DNA of 6,239 bases from NCBI GenBank assembly GCA_947575475.1, contig CANPNN010000079.1, positions 1 to 6,239 of the forward strand. Direction: 5' to 3'. The stretch is from an uncultured Pseudoflavonifractor sp. GTDB taxonomy: Bacteria; Bacillota_A; Clostridia; Oscillospirales; Oscillospiraceae. Of the stretch, positions 212 through 6,037 are shown piece after piece. Every line of letters starts with the position of its first letter. The first letter of the stretch is position 1. A program made the position numbers and the translations under genes. The notes under the pieces were generated by a model, which had not been told where the DNA came from, did not search any database, and saw only the letters and a program-made list of their open reading frames with translations.

Positions 212-2512
212 CTATTCCCTGTCCAACTCTTTTAGCTTTTCCTCATAAGCCCCGCAAAGCTCCGCCGCCGCTTCCATATCGGCGGCCTCGGCGATGATGC
301 GAAGGGCGTTTCGGCTGGATATGGGGGTGACATAGATCCAGCCCTGCCCTGTGCGCAGACGGACCCCCTCCCCCTGGGGGGCGGCGGAGAGGTTCTCCAG
401 CACCCGGCCCATGACCCGGCCCCGGCCTGTGCGGAGGGGCAGCTCTCCCCGGACGGTGGCGAACCGGGGCAGGTCCCGGTCCAAATGGGTCAGGGTCTCC
501 CCCGTCAGCCCCAAGCGGGAGGCCAGGCGGCAGGCGGCAAAAATGCCATCCCATAGCCAAGGCTGCTCCCGCCAGAGGGTCATGGCCTCCTCCCCGTCCC
601 GTCCCAGACGGAGAAGGCGGCCCCCAAAGCTCTCGGCCACCTGCTCGGCGGCGGCAGGCGCCCAAGACGGAAGGGCGGCGGCGCCCCGGCCATGCTCCAT
701 CTCGATGCGGGTCAGAAGCACCAGCACCCGGTCAGGCGGAATGAGCCGCCCCTCCTCGTCCCAAGCGGTGAGGCGGAAGCCGCCCCAGTCGGCGGAGAAG
801 GTGGGTGCGCCCCGGCCCGTGCCCCGGCGGACCCGGCAGCCCAGAGCTGTCAGGGCGGCAGCCAGCATGTCATTTGCCCCCTTCCCCTTCTCCACCTGGA
901 CCGTCAGGGGCCGAAGGGGGAGCTTTGTCAGGCAGGCCTGATCGGCGGCGTCGGAGGCATAGCCGGCGCGGACCCCCGCCACCGTCTCCAAACCGCCCAC
1001 CCGCATAGCGGCGACCCGGCTTCCCTCCCCCCGGAGAAGGGCCCCCTCTATCCTCCGCTGCTCAGGGCGGCCCAGGGGCAGACCGTCGGAGCCGAAAAGC
1101 CGCAGCTCAGCCCCGTCCCCGTCCTGCTGGACAAAAAGGGTCACCGGCAGCTTATAATAGCGTCCCAGCCAAGCCGCGGCGGAGGCGCAGGCAGCGTCGC
1201 TCATAAGGGCTGTCCCCCCGGCGGCGGCCACGCCGCAACCGGCACAGCGGGCCAGCATGGCCCCGCCGCTGCCCCCGGCCCAGCCCACTCCGACCTGCTC
1301 CCGCTCTCCCAAAAGGGAGCCCAATGCCAGCAAAGTCTCAGGGGTCAGTTCCTCCCCCACTACACCCCGGAGAGCGCCCCCGGCGGAAAATTTCAGCGGG
1401 GCAGCCCCGCCGGTCATGACTTGGGAGGCAGTGGCTTTTCCCCCCTCGGGGACCCGCCGCCCGGGCCACAGCTTGACTCCGGGGGCCACAATGGCCTCCG
1501 CCCCCACCACGGTGCCCTCCCCCAGCACCGCGCCGGGGCTGACGACGGCGCGGCGATGGATAAGGGCATTTTTGCAGGCGATGGCTCCGGAGACCTCGGC
1601 CCCCTCGCCCACTGTGGCTCCCAAAAGAACGGAGCGCTCCACCACCGCCCCGGTCTCCACGGTAGAGCCTTCCCCGATCACGGCATAGGGACCGATGACA
1701 CAGCCGGGGGACAGGGCCGCCCGCCGCCCCACCCAGCAGGGCTGGCGCACCGTCACCCCCGGCGGGAGCTGGGCTTTCCGGCCCGCCTCCAAGTCTAAAG
1801 ACACTTTGCCCGCCAAGGCGTCGTGAAGGCTGTCCAAATAGGCGGCGCAGTCCCCCATATCCTGCCAATATCCCCTTGCCTCCCAGCCATACAGGGCCTC
1901 GCCTTGGGAGAGCAGTTGGGGAAACAGCTCTTTGCCAAAATCATAGCTGGTCCCGCCGGGCACCAAGTCCATCGCCCGCCGGGAGAGGACATAGACCCCG
2001 GTGTTCACAAGTTCGGTATCCACTTGACCCCAGCCCGGTTTTTCCACAAAACCCAGCACCCGGCCCTGGTCGTCGGTGCGGACCAAGCCGTATTCCAAAG
2101 GCTCCGAGCGGCGGCAGAGGGCCAGGGTGGCCGCCGAGCGGCGGCTTTGGTGGAGGGCGGTCAGCTCCGTCAGGTCCAAGTCACACACCGCGTCCCCGCT
2201 GATGACCAAAAAGTCCTCCTCCCCCAAGAAGTCCATGCACTTTTTGACCCCGCCCGCGGTACCCAGAGGCTCATCCTCCACGAAGTAGGTCAGCTTGACC
2301 CCATATTCCTCCCCGTCCCCAAAATGGTCGGTGACGGCGGCGGGCAGGCACCGGAGGGTGACGGCGATCTCCCGCACCCCGTGGCGGCGCAGCAGGTCCA
2401 AAATGTGACCCAGCACCGGCTTGCCCAAAAAGGGGGTCATGGGCTTGGGACGCCCGATGGTCAGGGGCCGCAGCCGGCTTCCTTCTCCCCCCGCCAAAAT
2501 AACTGCCTTCAA
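212..2512 (-). CDS. Sugar-1-phosphate nucleotidyltransferase fused to a degenerate phosphomannomutase-like domain
   Basis: This 766-residue protein probably makes an NDP-sugar (GDP-mannose or a glucose equivalent) from NTP and a sugar-1-phosphate, for cell-surface polysaccharide. Residues 1-230 form the pyrophosphorylase: signature GGEGSRLRPLT (8-18), GDAVCDLDL (106-114) with the expected metal-binding aspartate, FVEKP (155-159) and NTG (170-172). Residues 250-350 show hexapeptide-like repeats typical of a left-handed beta-helix. Residues 365-766 follow the phosphomannomutase/phosphoglucomutase layout but lack its motifs: no TASHNP serine loop, SADWGGF (573-579) at the metal-loop position, and ISSRNALRI (731-739) instead of RPSGTEP. 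The tail is therefore probably regulatory or structural. The start is TTG at 2512, preceded by AAGGTGG; no closer in-frame ATG or GTG exists. No flanking sugar genes are visible, so the substrate is unassigned. Confidence 0.88.
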   Translation of the reverse strand: MKAVILAGGEGSRLRPLTIGRPKPMTPFLGKPVLGHILDLLRRHGVREIAVTLRCLPAAVTDHFGDGEEYGVKLTYFVEDEPLGTAGGVKKCMDFLGEEDFLVISGDAVCDLDLTELTALHQSRRSAATLALCRRSEPLEYGLVRTDDQGRVLGFVEKPGWGQVDTELVNTGVYVLSRRAMDLVPGGTSYDFGKELFPQLLSQGEALYGWEARGYWQDMGDCAAYLDSLHDALAGKVSLDLEAGRKAQLPPGVTVRQPCWVGRRAALSPGCVIGPYAVIGEGSTVETGAVVERSVLLGATVGEGAEVSGAIACKNALIHRRAVVSPGAVLGEGTVVGAEAIVAPGVKLWPGRRVPEGGKATASQVMTGGAAPLKFSAGGALRGVVGEELTPETLLALGSLLGEREQVGVGWAGGSGGAMLARCAGCGVAAAGGTALMSDAACASAAAWLGRYYKLPVTLFVQQDGDGAELRLFGSDGLPLGRPEQRRIEGALLRGEGSRVAAMRVGGLETVAGVRAGYASDAADQACLTKLPLRPLTVQVEKGKGANDMLAAALTALGCRVRRGTGRGAPTFSADWGGFRLTAWDEEGRLIPPDRVLVLLTRIEMEHGRGAAALPSWAPAAAEQVAESFGGRLLRLGRDGEEAMTLWREQPWLWDGIFAACRLASRLGLTGETLTHLDRDLPRFATVRGELPLRTGRGRVMGRVLENLSAAPQGEGVRLRTGQGWIYVTPISSRNALRIIAEAADMEAAAELCGAYEEKLKELDRE

Positions 2513-3225: not shown

Positions 3226-4206
3226 TTAGCCCTCCAGCGCCTTTTGCAGCATTCCCCTGTACTCCTCCACCGCCCACTCCGGGGCGGTGAGCCGGACCCC
3301 ATCCCCCAGGCCGAAGAGCCAGCCGTAAAACTGGGGGGAGACCACCGCGTCCACCGTCAAAGTGAAATGGTCTTTTCCATCGGGGATCAGCATGGCCTCC
3401 TGGCCGAAACGATCCAGCATCACGTTGACAAACCGGTTCTCACACCGCAGGCGGACCTTTGCCTCCCGGCCGGAGAACATATGGAAATGTTTCTGACCAT
3501 ACTCCGCCAGGTCAAAGTTTTTGCAGCTTGCGTCCCCCTCCCGGGGAAGGCTGGTTACCGTGAGAGCGTGCATCCGGTCCACCCGGTAGTGCCGCAGTCC
3601 GCTGCCCCCCTGCTCCCAGCCCACCAGATAGTAGTTCTCATCGCTCCATATAAGGCCGTAGGGGGAGACCACATAGCGCTTCCCCTCCCGGCGGAAGACC
3701 TTTTCCCGGTGGGCATTATAGTCGAAATACTGGAAGGTCACCACCCGTCCGGCGGCGATGGCGGCGTGAAGGCGGTCGATGGCGTAGTAAACGCTCTCGT
3801 TCTCCGTCTTCACCCGGCGGTCCACGTAGACCTGGCGTCGAAGCTGCTTGGCCTGATGCTCGCTGGTGAGGGCGGAGAGCTTGGCGATCAGGGCCTCGCT
3901 CTTTTTCCGGCTGATGAATCGGGAGGACTGGACCGCATCCACCAGCAGCTTCAGTTCCGGCAGTTCAAAGTCCCGCTCCCCTATGAACCAGCCGCCGCCC
4001 CGGCCCTTTCGCAGCTGCACATCCACCCCCAGATCCTGAAGGGTCTCCATGTCGGTATAGACGCTCTTTCGCTCCGCCGGGATGCCCTCTCGCTCCAGGA
4101 CTTCGATCAGCTCTGGAGTGGAGATGGGGCGGTCCTCATCTCCCTTTTTCAACAAAACCTGGTACAGCACCAGCAGTTTGGCTTTTTGGTTACTCTTCTT
4201 TGCCAT
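3226..4206 (-). CDS. WYL-domain transcriptional regulator
   Basis: This 326-residue cytoplasmic regulator has the classic three-part layout. Residues 8-75 are a winged helix-turn-helix of the HTH_11 type, with ISTPELIEVLEREGI and the recognition helix ERKSVYTDMETLQDLGV (45-61), then the wing GRGGGWFIG (68-76). Residues 135-215 are the WYL domain, with FDYNAHREKVF (161-171), SPYGLIWSDENYYLVGW (181-197; YYL replaces WYL) and RHYRVDRM (205-212). Residues 245-326 are the C-terminal WCX extension. WYL domains bind small ligands or nucleic acid; the ligand here is unknown. AAGGGGG lies eight bases before the ATG. The gene diverges from the lysine riboswitch and epimerase locus, and dyads in the shared gap suggest autoregulation and possibly control of the neighbours. 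Confidence 0.9.
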   Translation of the reverse strand: MAKKSNQKAKLLVLYQVLLKKGDEDRPISTPELIEVLEREGIPAERKSVYTDMETLQDLGVDVQLRKGRGGGWFIGERDFELPELKLLVDAVQSSRFISRKKSEALIAKLSALTSEHQAKQLRRQVYVDRRVKTENESVYYAIDRLHAAIAAGRVVTFQYFDYNAHREKVFRREGKRYVVSPYGLIWSDENYYLVGWEQGGSGLRHYRVDRMHALTVTSLPREGDASCKNFDLAEYGQKHFHMFSGREAKVRLRCENRFVNVMLDRFGQEAMLIPDGKDHFTLTVDAVVSPQFYGWLFGLGDGVRLTAPEWAVEEYRGMLQKALEG

Positions 4207-4321: not shown

Positions 4322-4350
4322 TTGACAACCCTTTTCCCGCGTGATAATAT
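4322..4350 (+). promoter_or_regulatory. Strong promoter of the lysine riboswitch transcript
   Basis: A consensus TTGACA (4322-4327) is followed after 17 bp by TAATAT (4345-4350), with an extended TGA directly upstream of the -10. The expected start near 4357 is just before the 5' strand of the riboswitch P1 stem, as is normal for riboswitch leaders. Confidence 0.75.
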
Positions 4351-4364
4351 TCTTATAGGATCCA

Positions 4365-4538
4365 ACCTGTATAGAGGCGCGGAGCTCATCAGTACCCACC
4401 GGCAAGGCCAGGCAGCCGCCGGGGGAGAAAGGGAGCGCCGCCGAGGGAGACAGCGGTGCCTGCCGCCTGTTTCCCGGGCCGTCGGGAAATACCCGCCGGA
4501 CTGTCACAGTTATCTGTTCTGTGGAGCGCTATCCGGGT
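4365..4538 (+). promoter_or_regulatory. Lysine riboswitch (L-box)
   Basis: The conserved core of the lysine riboswitch can be read in order: AGAGGCGCGG (4373-4382) and AGTA (4391-4394); GGGAGCGCCGCCGAGG (4431-4446); GGGCCGTCGGGAAATA (4476-4491) with GGACTGTCA (4498-4506); and CTGTGGAGCGCTATC (4519-4533). Stem P1 pairs ACCTGTATAG (4365-4374) with CTATCCGGGT (4529-4538), nine of ten positions including wobbles. P5 pairs CACAG (4505-4509) with CTGTG (4519-4523). In this class lysine binding stabilises P1. Here GGAGCG and UCCG (4523-4535, with CUA bulged) could alternatively pair with CGGACGCUCU (4584-4593), destroying the terminator, so lysine is predicted to favour termination. The next gene is a dipeptide epimerase, not a usual lysine biosynthesis or transport gene. 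Confidence 0.9.
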
Positions 4539-4583
4539 CTGTGGGGCTGAAATAGGGTGTATACCCTGGTCTTACATTCCTTT

Positions 4584-4616
4584 CGGACGCTCTCTGCAGA
4601 GAGCGTCCGCTTTTTT
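4584..4616 (+). terminator. Riboswitch-controlled intrinsic terminator
   Basis: A perfect 11-bp stem (CGGACGCTCTC at 4584-4594 against 4599-4609) with a TGCA loop is followed by C and six Ts (4611-4616). It lies about 45 nt after the L-box P1 stem and is its expression platform. Its left arm can pair instead with the P1 3' strand and core. Confidence 0.92.
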
Positions 4617-4678
4617 ATCCCGATCCCGGTACAGAAAGCGGCCCAAGCGCCGAAAAGTGCGGCCATATCCGGTTTCCC
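4617..4678. other. Spacer between the riboswitch terminator and second promoter
   Basis: I see no gene and no strong secondary structure here. GCGGCC occurs twice as a short direct repeat (4638-4643 and 4659-4664), which is probably incidental. Confidence 0.4.
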
Positions 4679-4707
4679 TTTACAAGTATCTGGGAATATG
4701 GTATAAT
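4679..4707 (+). promoter_or_regulatory. Second promoter, directly upstream of the epimerase
   Basis: TTTACA (4679-4684) and a consensus TATAAT (4702-4707) are 17 bp apart, with an extended TGG before the -10. It lies downstream of the riboswitch terminator, so transcripts from it (start near 4714) would escape lysine control. Confidence 0.7.
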
Positions 4708-4726
4708 AATTTATCTATCTGTCACG

Positions 4727-4764
4727 AGAATTTGAATCAATAGGACGCGAAAGTTTCAAATTTT
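4727..4764 (+). promoter_or_regulatory. Stem-loop in the epimerase 5' leader
   Basis: AGAATTTGAA (4727-4736) pairs with TTCAAATTTT (4755-4764), nine Watson-Crick pairs and one G-U, around an 18-nt loop. The stem ends three bases before GGAGG (4768-4772), the epimerase ribosome binding site. It could affect mRNA stability or ribosome access, or serve as a DNA site. It is AT-rich and unproven. Confidence 0.35.
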
Positions 4765-4780
4765 ATTGGAGGCGTTTTTT

Positions 4781-5863
4781 GTGCGTATTACTGCCATTCA
4801 AGTAGGACGGCTCTCCCTCCCCCTGTCCCACCCCTTCAAGACCGCCCTGCGCACCGTGGACCGGCTGGAGGACGTAGTGGTCCGGGTGGTGGGGGAAAAT
4901 GGACTGGAAGGCTATGGCGAAGCGCCTCCCACCGCCGTCATCACCGGGGATACCACCGGCTCCATTCTCTGCGCCATCCAAGACTTCATCGCTCCCGCCG
5001 TCGTGGGGATGGACCTTGAGGACCTCCCGGCCGTCATGGAGCGACTTCAGGGCTGTATGGTCCACAACACGACCCCAAAGGCCGCTGTGGACATGGCTCT
5101 CTACGACCTGTGGGCCAAGACCCAGGGCAAGCCCCTTTACCAGCTCCTGGGAAATGCCAAGACCTCTTTTGAAACAGACATCACCATCTCGGTAAACCCG
5201 GTGGAGGAGATGGTAAAGGACAGTTTGGAGGCCGTGGGAAAGGGCTTCACCACCTTGAAGATCAAGGTGGGCAAGGAGGGCGCCGCCGACGTGGAGCGCA
5301 TCGCCGCCATCCGGGAGGCGGTAGGTCCCGGCGTGAAGCTTCGGGTGGACGCCAACCAGGGCTGGACCGCCGCCCAGTCGGTGGCCATCATCAAGGCCAT
5401 GGAGGATAAAGGGCTGGACATTGAGCTGGTCGAACAGCCCGTCCCCGCCCTGGACGTGGCGGGGCTCAAGTTCGTCACCGGGGAGGTGGATACCCCCATC
5501 CTGGCGGACGAGGCGGTATTCTCCCCCACAGACGCGGCCAACCTCATCGCCATCCACGCCGCCGACTATATCAACATCAAACTGATGAAGACCGGCGGGA
5601 TCTGGAATGCCCTGAAGATCTGTGAGCTTGCCAAGCGGCACAATGTGAAATGCATGATCGGCTGTATGCTGGAAAGCCAGATCTCGGTAGCCGCCGCCGC
5701 CCACCTGTGCGCCGGTCAGGAGGTCATCGCCATGGCCGATCTGGACGGTCCCAGCCTCTGCGCTTGTGACCCCTTCCCCGGCGGCCCCCTCTTTGATGGG
5801 CCCACCATCTCCATGAGCGGCGACCCGGGTATCGGCGTCCAGTTCTCCACGGAGTGGAAATAA
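4781..5863 (+). CDS. Dipeptide epimerase, L-Ala-D/L-Glu epimerase type (enolase superfamily)
   Basis: This 360-residue enzyme should epimerise the C-terminal residue of a dipeptide, classically L-Ala-D-Glu from murein, in the cytoplasm. Counting from the GTG at 4781, acid-base lysines are K160 and K162 (KIKVG) and K267 (NIKLMK). Metal ligands are D190 (DAN), E218 (EQP) and D243 (ADE). The DLD motif (320-322), which in the family binds the substrate amino group, and R24 in PFKTALR, which contacts the glutamate end in the Bacillus enzyme as I recall it, are both present. The fold is a capping domain (about 1-125) followed by a beta/alpha barrel. GTG at 4781 is chosen because GGAGG (4768-4772) lies eight bases before it; the upstream in-frame TTG at 4766 overlaps that site. 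Substrate specificity cannot be settled from sequence. The Bacillus subtilis equivalent is YkfB. Confidence 0.92.
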   Translation: MRITAIQVGRLSLPLSHPFKTALRTVDRLEDVVVRVVGENGLEGYGEAPPTAVITGDTTGSILCAIQDFIAPAVVGMDLEDLPAVMERLQGCMVHNTTPKAAVDMALYDLWAKTQGKPLYQLLGNAKTSFETDITISVNPVEEMVKDSLEAVGKGFTTLKIKVGKEGAADVERIAAIREAVGPGVKLRVDANQGWTAAQSVAIIKAMEDKGLDIELVEQPVPALDVAGLKFVTGEVDTPILADEAVFSPTDAANLIAIHAADYINIKLMKTGGIWNALKICELAKRHNVKCMIGCMLESQISVAAAAHLCAGQEVIAMADLDGPSLCACDPFPGGPLFDGPTISMSGDPGIGVQFSTEWK

Positions 5864-6037
5864 ATTAAGTTAAAAATGAAAAGTTGCGGTGTCCGGCAAA
5901 GCCGGACTATTAAAATAGTCGCCTTCGGCGATAACAGAATACAGCTTTTTCACTTATCTTGTATCGTCTCCGCCCCCCGGCGGTCATGATAGGAGCCCCT
6001 CCGGCTCCACAACAAACGGAAGGAAGGATATGAAGCC
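5864..6037 (+). other. Hairpin-rich gap before the lipoprotein gene
   Basis: No gene is visible. Besides the triple hairpin at 5891-5931, there are CCGCC/GGCGG (5970-5974 with 5979-5983) and GGAGCC/GGCTCC (5992-5997 with 6003-6008), the latter about 12 bases before the lipoprotein ribosome binding site. No stem is followed directly by a T run; CTTTTT occurs at 5945-5950. I found no convincing promoter, so read-through from the epimerase is possible but not shown. Confidence 0.4.
5891..5931. repeat. Three abutting short-loop hairpins, possible intergenic repeat
   Basis: Three inverted repeats run into each other: GTCCGGC-AAA-GCCGGAC (5891-5907), GACTAT-TAAA-ATAGTC (5905-5920) and TCGCC-TTC-GGCGA (5919-5931). 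The first and second share GAC and the second and third share TC, so they are mutually exclusive at their ends. No U tract follows. The compact design resembles dispersed palindromic repeats, though copy number cannot be judged from one window. Confidence 0.4.

What the first reader, a model, noticed from the sequence alone, without database searches (positions are those of the whole stretch)
4322..5863. Lysine riboswitch placed upstream of a dipeptide epimerase and a peptide-binding lipoprotein
The L-box core, P1 and P5 stems and terminator are readable directly. Known lysine riboswitches mostly control lysine synthesis (lysC, lysA, dap genes) or lysine transporters. Here the first gene downstream is an Ala-Glu-type dipeptide epimerase, followed by what looks like an oligopeptide-binding protein. 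I infer that the cell may treat imported peptides, perhaps murein peptides containing DAP or lysine, as a lysine source and shut down scavenging when lysine is plentiful. The alternative is an orphan riboswitch whose original gene has been lost.
Basis: partly seen in the sequence, partly recalled or inferred. Interest (0 to 1): 0.75.

Follow-up and report, generated by a model that had tools for sequence, protein, structure and literature searches.

The report
Lysine riboswitch on cell-wall-peptide salvage operon
In one genus of Firmicutes, an RNA switch of the lysine-sensing class sits in front of genes that look set to import and dismantle cell-wall peptides, which suggests that these cells treat wall fragments as a source of lysine or its precursor.

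Summary
Observation confirmed. Window 4364-4539 (+) is a full-length lysine riboswitch (RF00168, 97.6 bits, cut-off 30), with a terminator at 4584-4609. Next come a YkfB-like L-Ala-D/L-Glu epimerase (GTG 4781-5863) and an OppA-type lipoprotein.

Relatives extend the operon: epimerase-oppA-oppB-oppC-oppD-oppF-S66 LD-carboxypeptidase-NlpC/P60, the Bacillus-type murein-peptide route that frees diaminopimelate or lysine.

The pairing occurs in 13 of 16 genomes of one Oscillospiraceae genus plus the window. Of 80 epimerase loci sampled across genera, 7 have it, all in that genus. The 14 aptamers covary and form one clade, so an orphan is unlikely. The three genus members without it have a lysine riboswitch on asd-dapA-dapB instead.

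In the window's lineage lysine can probably silence only the upstream promoter; seven relatives lack that second site.

Known riboswitch class on a target I did not find described. No experiment was done.

The parts
4322..4350 (+). Promoter P1 of the riboswitch leader, TTGACA-17-TAATAT
   Evidence: a TTGACA is visible upstream of each of the 12 relatives' riboswitches printed
4364..4539 (+). Lysine riboswitch aptamer (RF00168)
   Evidence: 97.6 bits, E 1.1e-25; covariation over 14 homologues
4522..4538 (+). Predicted 5' part of the antiterminator: around the 3' strand of aptamer helix P1
   Evidence: pairs with 4581-4594, duplex -14.8 kcal/mol, 5.3% of shuffles as low; inference
4581..4594 (+). 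Terminator 5' arm and three bases before it, predicted partner of the antiterminator
   Evidence: inference
4584..4616 (+). Intrinsic terminator: 11-pair stem 4584-4609 and T-tract
4679..4707 (+). Second promoter-like site P2, TTTACA-17-TATAAT with TG before the -10, beyond the terminator
   Evidence: 11 of 12; present in 7 of 7 long-leader and 12 of 17 no-riboswitch loci
4766..4772 (+). Ribosome-binding site TTGGAGG
   Evidence: sequence
4781..5863 (+). L-Ala-D/L-Glu (dipeptide) epimerase, YkfB-like, GTG start, 360 aa
6038..6239 (+). OppA-type peptide-binding lipoprotein, N-terminal 67 aa (cut by window end)
   Evidence: 87% identical to L001 OppA, which is SBP_bac_5
3226..4206 (-). Divergent WYL/WCX-domain regulator, a possible local regulator of P2 (inference)

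Best explanation
A genuine lysine riboswitch, most likely of the OFF, transcription-terminating kind, is attached to a Ykf/Opp-type operon that imports murein stem peptides and takes them apart inside the cell. Proposed chain: OppABCDF brings in free stem peptide; the S66 LD-carboxypeptidase trims the terminal D-Ala; the YkfC-like NlpC/P60 enzyme cuts gamma-D-Glu-DAP (or Lys); the epimerase turns L-Ala-D-Glu into L-Ala-L-Glu for ordinary peptidases; the freed DAP becomes lysine through LysA. When lysine is scarce, helix P1 opens, its 3' strand pairs with the 5' arm of the terminator, and transcripts from promoter P1 run into the operon. When lysine is plentiful they stop at about 4616. In the window's sub-lineage the old operon promoter P2 still lies behind the terminator, so the riboswitch adds a lysine-sensitive boost to lysine-independent expression; in relatives that lack P2 it appears to be the only control. 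Shown by computation: aptamer, terminator, enzyme families, conservation in the genus, covariation, aptamer clade, recurrence of P2. Inferred: OFF direction, peptide specificity, DAP-to-lysine flux, activity of P1 and P2, and the window's own operon beyond oppA (read from relatives).
For: Aptamer at 97.6 bits. Operon order and families in relatives; tblastn finds all eight genes in 12 of 16 genus genomes, the other 4 being cut by contig ends. Epimerase closest to 1jpm, with R24, K160, K162, D190, E218, D243, K267, D320 and D322 in the window protein and invariant in 26 aligned sequences; their roles are recalled from the B. subtilis enzyme. NlpC/P60 protein: top PDB hit a putative dipeptidyl-peptidase VI; Y173, W175, D184, C185, R202 and D203 (L001), invariant in 6 of 6 aligned homologues, have the same spacing as Tyr226, Trp228, Asp237, Cys238, Arg255 and Asp256 of B. 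cereus YkfC (PMC2954226, passages). S66 top hit a muramoyltetrapeptide carboxypeptidase. Adjacency in 13 of 16 genus genomes. Covariation: 20 of 53 pairs changed on both sides, shuffled mean 11.2, 0 of 500 shuffles reaching it. Aptamers one clade. LysA-like in 15 of 16, dapB in 12 of 16, dapF in 14 of 16.
Against: P2 beyond the terminator could make the riboswitch unimportant in this lineage. The antiterminator duplex is only modestly better than shuffles (window 5.3% of shuffles as low; in 4 of the 13 leaders scored 32% or more); the script found no terminator in G006 and only a weak hairpin in G054. LysA matches are all below the curated cut-off (0 of 16 over it), and the epimerase is below its equivalog cut-off. 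The de novo dap genes are kept in most genomes, so salvage is not obligatory. Outside the genus the arrangement was not seen (7 of 80 loci, all in the genus). The operon also yields Ala and Glu, so lysine need not be its point. The 174-nt gap between epimerase and oppA in the window leaves co-transcription unproven.
Confidence: 0.75

Rival explanations
1. Bypassed riboswitch: in the window's lineage P2 alone drives the operon; P1 transcripts end at the terminator whatever the lysine level, and the riboswitch is a leftover or only makes a short leader RNA.
For: P2 is the best promoter match in the region (11 of 12) and is shared with 12 of 17 loci without the riboswitch.
Against: Aptamers of the seven long-leader sequences score 79-104 bits, the seven short-leader ones 84-100; covariation over all 14 (not tested on the long type alone); P1, terminator and a plausible antiterminator are kept in the window, G001 and G340. 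Seven short-leader genomes without P2 show that the riboswitch can be the main control.
Confidence: 0.2
2. Orphan riboswitch: a lysine gene once behind it was lost, and the epimerase is there by accident.
Against: Kept beside the same operon in 13 of 16 genomes; one aptamer clade; no room for a remnant gene in the seven short leaders, about 87-103 nt from aptamer end to start codon.
Confidence: 0.03
3. ON switch: lysine excess raises expression, as has been claimed for lysine-catabolism genes under this riboswitch.
For: PMC5584792 section 13 (read) says kal/kce genes are positively regulated; related genomes G011, G013 and G027 have lysine-fermentation genes (kal, kce, kdd, kamA models) near weak riboswitches (63-75 bits).
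Against: Terminator directly behind the aptamer and complementarity of the P1 strand to the terminator arm fit an OFF switch; aptamers lie apart from the kal ones; the operon would make DAP/Lys rather than consume it.
Confidence: 0.04

Closest known systems
Lysine riboswitch (L-box, RF00168) upstream of lysine biosynthesis and transporter genes
   Same: Aptamer class, helices, intrinsic terminator, probable OFF logic
   Different: Target is a murein-peptide uptake and degradation operon, not lysine biosynthesis genes or lysP/gabP, lysW, yvsH or lysXY (targets from PMC5584792: section 12 read; passages)
B. subtilis ykfABCD-dpp and B. cereus ykfBC-oppA murein-peptide genes
   Same: YkfB epimerase, YkfC NlpC/P60, YkfA LD-carboxypeptidase and peptide ABC-importer parts together (PMC2954226 passages)
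   Different: Gene order, added lysine riboswitch, and in some loci a beta-lactamase-like hydrolase or a DppA D-aminopeptidase. B. subtilis control by CodY is recalled, not checked
Lysine riboswitch upstream of oligoendopeptidase F in Mycoplasma
   Same: Lysine riboswitch on a peptide-breaking gene (PMC5584792 section 12)
   Different: Different enzyme; no murein enzymes expected, as mycoplasmas have no wall (recalled); the authors read it as a putative transporter operon
Lysine riboswitch on asd-dapA-dapB in genus members G267, G338 and G339
   Same: Same genus; control of DAP/lysine supply
   Different: De novo synthesis rather than salvage; these three aptamers form their own clade (100/99)

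Membership tests
Lysine riboswitch RF00168 | Covariance-model score over the curated cut-off, full length | tested here: met
   97.6 bits vs 30, positions 1-182
Lysine riboswitch RF00168 | Family helices kept by compensatory change | tested here: met
   20 of 53 pairs with two-sided change, 0/500 shuffles; structures slid by 1-3 columns give 4-11
Lysine riboswitch RF00168 | Expression platform with terminator/antiterminator | tested here: inconclusive
   A hairpin with T-run was scored in 13 of 14 leaders (in G054 only a weak one, in G006 none); antiterminator duplex: 2% to 62% of shuffles as low
Lysine riboswitch RF00168 | Binds L-lysine | not testable with these tools
   -
L-Ala-D/L-Glu epimerase (YkfB/YcjG) | Closest to characterised L-Ala-D/L-Glu epimerases | tested here: met
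   1jpm 354 bits, next 3jva 250.6
L-Ala-D/L-Glu epimerase (YkfB/YcjG) | Catalytic lysines, metal acids and substrate Arg/Asp-x-Asp | tested here: met
   Present in the window, invariant in 26 sequences; residue roles recalled
L-Ala-D/L-Glu epimerase (YkfB/YcjG) | Curated NCBIfam equivalog cut-off | tested here: not met
   Best model NF041118 (A_G_epim_Thtga) 254.6 bits vs 500; NF011708 133.3 vs 343
YkfC-type gamma-D-Glu-diamino acid endopeptidase | SH3b plus NlpC/P60 domains, Asp 18 residues after the catalytic Cys | tested here: met
   SH3_16, SH3_3 and NLPC_P60; C185, D203 (PMC2954226). In relatives; the window ends before this gene
YkfC-type gamma-D-Glu-diamino acid endopeptidase | Conserved Tyr of the SH3b domain (Tyr118 of B. 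cereus YkfC) | not tested
   no alignment to that protein's SH3b domain was made
Ykf/Dpp murein-peptide salvage operon | Epimerase, LD-carboxypeptidase, NlpC/P60 and peptide ABC importer clustered | tested here: met
   All eight genes in 12 of 16 genus genomes, 4 cut by contig ends; order. In the window only the first two genes are visible
Ykf/Dpp murein-peptide salvage operon | Uptake of or growth on murein tripeptide | not testable with these tools
   -

The most novel reading that the evidence does not exclude
Lysine homeostasis in this genus has been rewired: riboswitch control was lost from, or never held by, the de novo asd-dapA-dapB operon of one sub-clade and was placed, once, on cell-wall-peptide salvage, apparently by copying a lysine-transporter riboswitch. 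Living lineages preserve the steps: old promoter only; riboswitch plus old promoter; riboswitch only. Cell-wall peptides would then act as a regulated lysine reserve.
Probability: 0.5. Interest if true: 0.7.

Novelty: new variant of a known kind. Interest (0 to 1): 0.55.

Why it matters
It would tie a well-understood amino-acid sensor to peptidoglycan salvage, a link that I did not find in the held open library (titles and abstract beginnings, few papers opened). It gives a simple test of whether these Firmicutes use wall fragments, their own or their neighbours', as a lysine/DAP source. It also offers a tractable case of how a riboswitch is captured by a new operon, with three promoter states among close relatives.

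Tried and rejected
Rejected: orphan riboswitch (adjacency kept, covariation, one aptamer clade). Rejected: wide distribution. Of the 80 epimerase loci, 7 have the pairing, all in one genus; the rest were judged by comparing riboswitch and gene coordinates, with cmscan of eight doubtful or short loci (L007, L022, L042, L046, L055, L074, L077, L080), all negative. L080 has only 25 bases upstream, so it cannot tell. A crude core-motif check within 1 kb upstream hit 8 of 80: six of the seven true loci (it missed L005) plus L022 and L042, which cmscan did not confirm; on loci with a known riboswitch the motif found 52 of 60. Among the 30 best-scoring riboswitch loci kept from a 300-genome family sample (244 of 300 with a riboswitch, 27 of 300 with an epimerase at E <= 1e-60), 0 of 30 had epimerase, oppA, oppF, S66 or nlpC nearby. 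My classes from tblastn: 19 LysXY-type, 5 asd/dapA, 2 NhaC, 1 weak LysA-like, 3 unclassified. The list was cut and is biased to high scores, so this is not a full survey. Two of the 27 epimerase loci (L191, L192) were fetched but not cmscanned, and five weaker ones (G102, G112, G273, G281, G293) were not fetched.

Led nowhere: Rfam search of 4540-4800 for a further leader RNA (two sub-threshold microRNA matches); consensus fold of the leader after P2 (none). The concatenated tree with all eight genes mixed histories, so WYL+epimerase+oppD+oppF was used; that choice was made. Changes of the riboswitch state needed: 1 on that tree, 2 on epimerase alone and on WYL alone, 3 on all eight genes, 5 on oppABC. 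'One gain' therefore rests on the chosen genes and on the aptamer tree, whose deep branches are weak (35/38) and whose bootstrap had not settled. Whether P2 was kept and lost about four times, or lost and regained once, is not settled (needs 2 changes).

Rodionov et al. 2003, the early survey of L-box targets (cited in PMC3766115), is not held, so I could not check it.

Full report
Observation. The window holds a full-length lysine riboswitch at 4364-4539 (97.6 bits), with a promoter-like site at 4322-4350 and a terminator at 4584-4609. The epimerase gene starts at GTG 4781 behind TTGGAGG and is closest to 1jpm, an L-Ala-D/L-Glu epimerase. The next gene is the start of an OppA-type lipoprotein. 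No whole genome is held for the window.

Operon. In relatives the order is epimerase, oppA, oppB, oppC, oppD, oppF, S66 LD-carboxypeptidase, in some a beta-lactamase-like hydrolase, then an SH3b-NlpC/P60 protein; some more distant relatives add a DppA-type D-aminopeptidase. By tblastn all eight genes are found in 12 of 16 genus genomes; in the other four the contig ends first. The S66 protein's top PDB hit is a muramoyltetrapeptide carboxypeptidase. The NlpC/P60 protein's top hit is a putative dipeptidyl-peptidase VI, and its active-site residues have the spacing described for B. cereus YkfC in PMC2954226 (passages). That paper describes a YkfA-YkfC-YkfB route from stem peptide to DAP and L-Ala-L-Glu in B. 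subtilis. The window shows only the first two genes; the rest is inferred from long-leader relatives at 83-93% epimerase identity.

Conservation. Of 80 epimerase loci, 7 have the riboswitch directly upstream (L001-L006, L008), judged by coordinates with cmscan of eight further loci; L080 is too short to tell. All 16 genomes of the genus of G001 have the epimerase. The riboswitch is upstream in 12 by cmscan, and in a thirteenth (G340) riboswitch and epimerase lie on contig ends that overlap by 55 bases. Twelve other loci have none (ten; L187 and L189). The 14 aptamers covary and form one clade (94/92). That clade lies among transporter-linked aptamers and apart from the asd and kal ones, but the deep branches are weak.

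What the other riboswitches do. In the 16 genomes 31 riboswitches were found. By ORF reading, family scans and tblastn I assign 13 to the epimerase, 7 to NhaC-type transporters, 1 to an NhaC-M20 pair, 6 to LysXY-type amino-acid ABC transporters, 3 to asd-dapA-dapB and 1 to a DcuC-M20 pair. Family scans covered examples of each transporter class, not every locus. The three on asd-dapA-dapB are in exactly the three genomes without the epimerase riboswitch (G267, G338, G339). Among the 13 with it, dapB was found in 9, in each case on a contig without a riboswitch. In five of these (G001, G003, G004, G008, G340) the fetched stretch holds the whole asd-dapA-dapB and its upstream, and cmscan finds none. 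Two more stretches (L212, L214) do not reach the start of asd.

Two leader types. Long leaders (window, G001, G002, G336, G337, G340, G341) keep a second promoter-like site (TTTACA-17-TATAAT, TAAAAT or TAAACT, TG before the -10) between terminator and gene: 7 of 7. Short leaders (G003, G004, G005, G006, G008, G054, G335) do not: 0 of 7. A match to the same site lies upstream of 12 of 17 epimerase loci without the riboswitch, so it looks ancestral. On the WYL+epimerase+oppD+oppF tree the riboswitch clade has 97% SH-aLRT and the long type is one clade inside it (98%). Other gene sets need more changes.

Mechanism. The 3' strand of P1 can pair with the terminator's 5' arm in the window, G001 and G340 (-14.8 kcal/mol; 2-6% of shuffles as low), less convincingly elsewhere. 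That fits an OFF switch. Because P2 lies beyond the terminator, lysine should only remove the P1 contribution in the window's lineage. LysA-like proteins match in 15 of 16 genomes, none over the curated cut-off; the one of G001 has lysA as its best family and a diaminopimelate decarboxylase (2yxx) as its best PDB match.

Literature. In the held open library no paper has both 'lysine riboswitch' and 'dipeptide epimerase' or 'murein'. Searches with oligopeptide, peptidoglycan recycling, peptidoglycan plus diaminopimel-, muropeptide and dipeptide listed 4 to 9 papers each, none of which reports this from title and abstract beginning. Of all papers I saw two whole sections, outline and passages of PMC5584792 and passages of PMC3766115, PMC2954226 and PMC13046274; the others only as listings. 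The 2003 L-box survey is not held, so novelty is provisional.

Noticed in passing
L207-L211 versus L201, L203, L205: In this genus asd-dapA-dapB carries a lysine riboswitch only in the three members whose epimerase operon lacks one.
   Followed up: partly
L001, L206, L216, L217, L218 (oppA-oppC) versus L011, L013: oppABC of five long-leader genomes group with Intestinimonas-titled loci while epimerase/oppD/oppF do not: the operon looks mosaic, possibly by replacement of its transporter core.
   Followed up: partly
L116 about 6690-9618 and L112 about 4612-7447: Lysine riboswitches in front of a DcuC- or NhaC-family transporter followed by an M20 peptidase, perhaps uptake of lysine-containing peptides or acyl-lysines.
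   Followed up: partly
window 4708-4772: Short inverted repeat (TTTGAA...TTCAAA in the window) between P2 and the ribosome-binding site, recognisable in the seven long leaders, with no consensus fold; could be an operator, e.g. for the divergent WYL regulator.
   Followed up: partly
L120, L121, L122: Low-scoring lysine riboswitches (63-75 bits) near lysine-fermentation genes: kal in L121, kce, kdd and kamA in L122, kdd in L120.
   Followed up: partly
window 212-2512 (-): Sugar-phosphate nucleotidyltransferase whose C-terminal part resembles phosphoglucosamine mutase.
   Followed up: no
window 5864-6037: 174-nt gap with small hairpins between epimerase and oppA, shorter in some relatives; no + strand promoter passed the scan there.
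   Followed up: no
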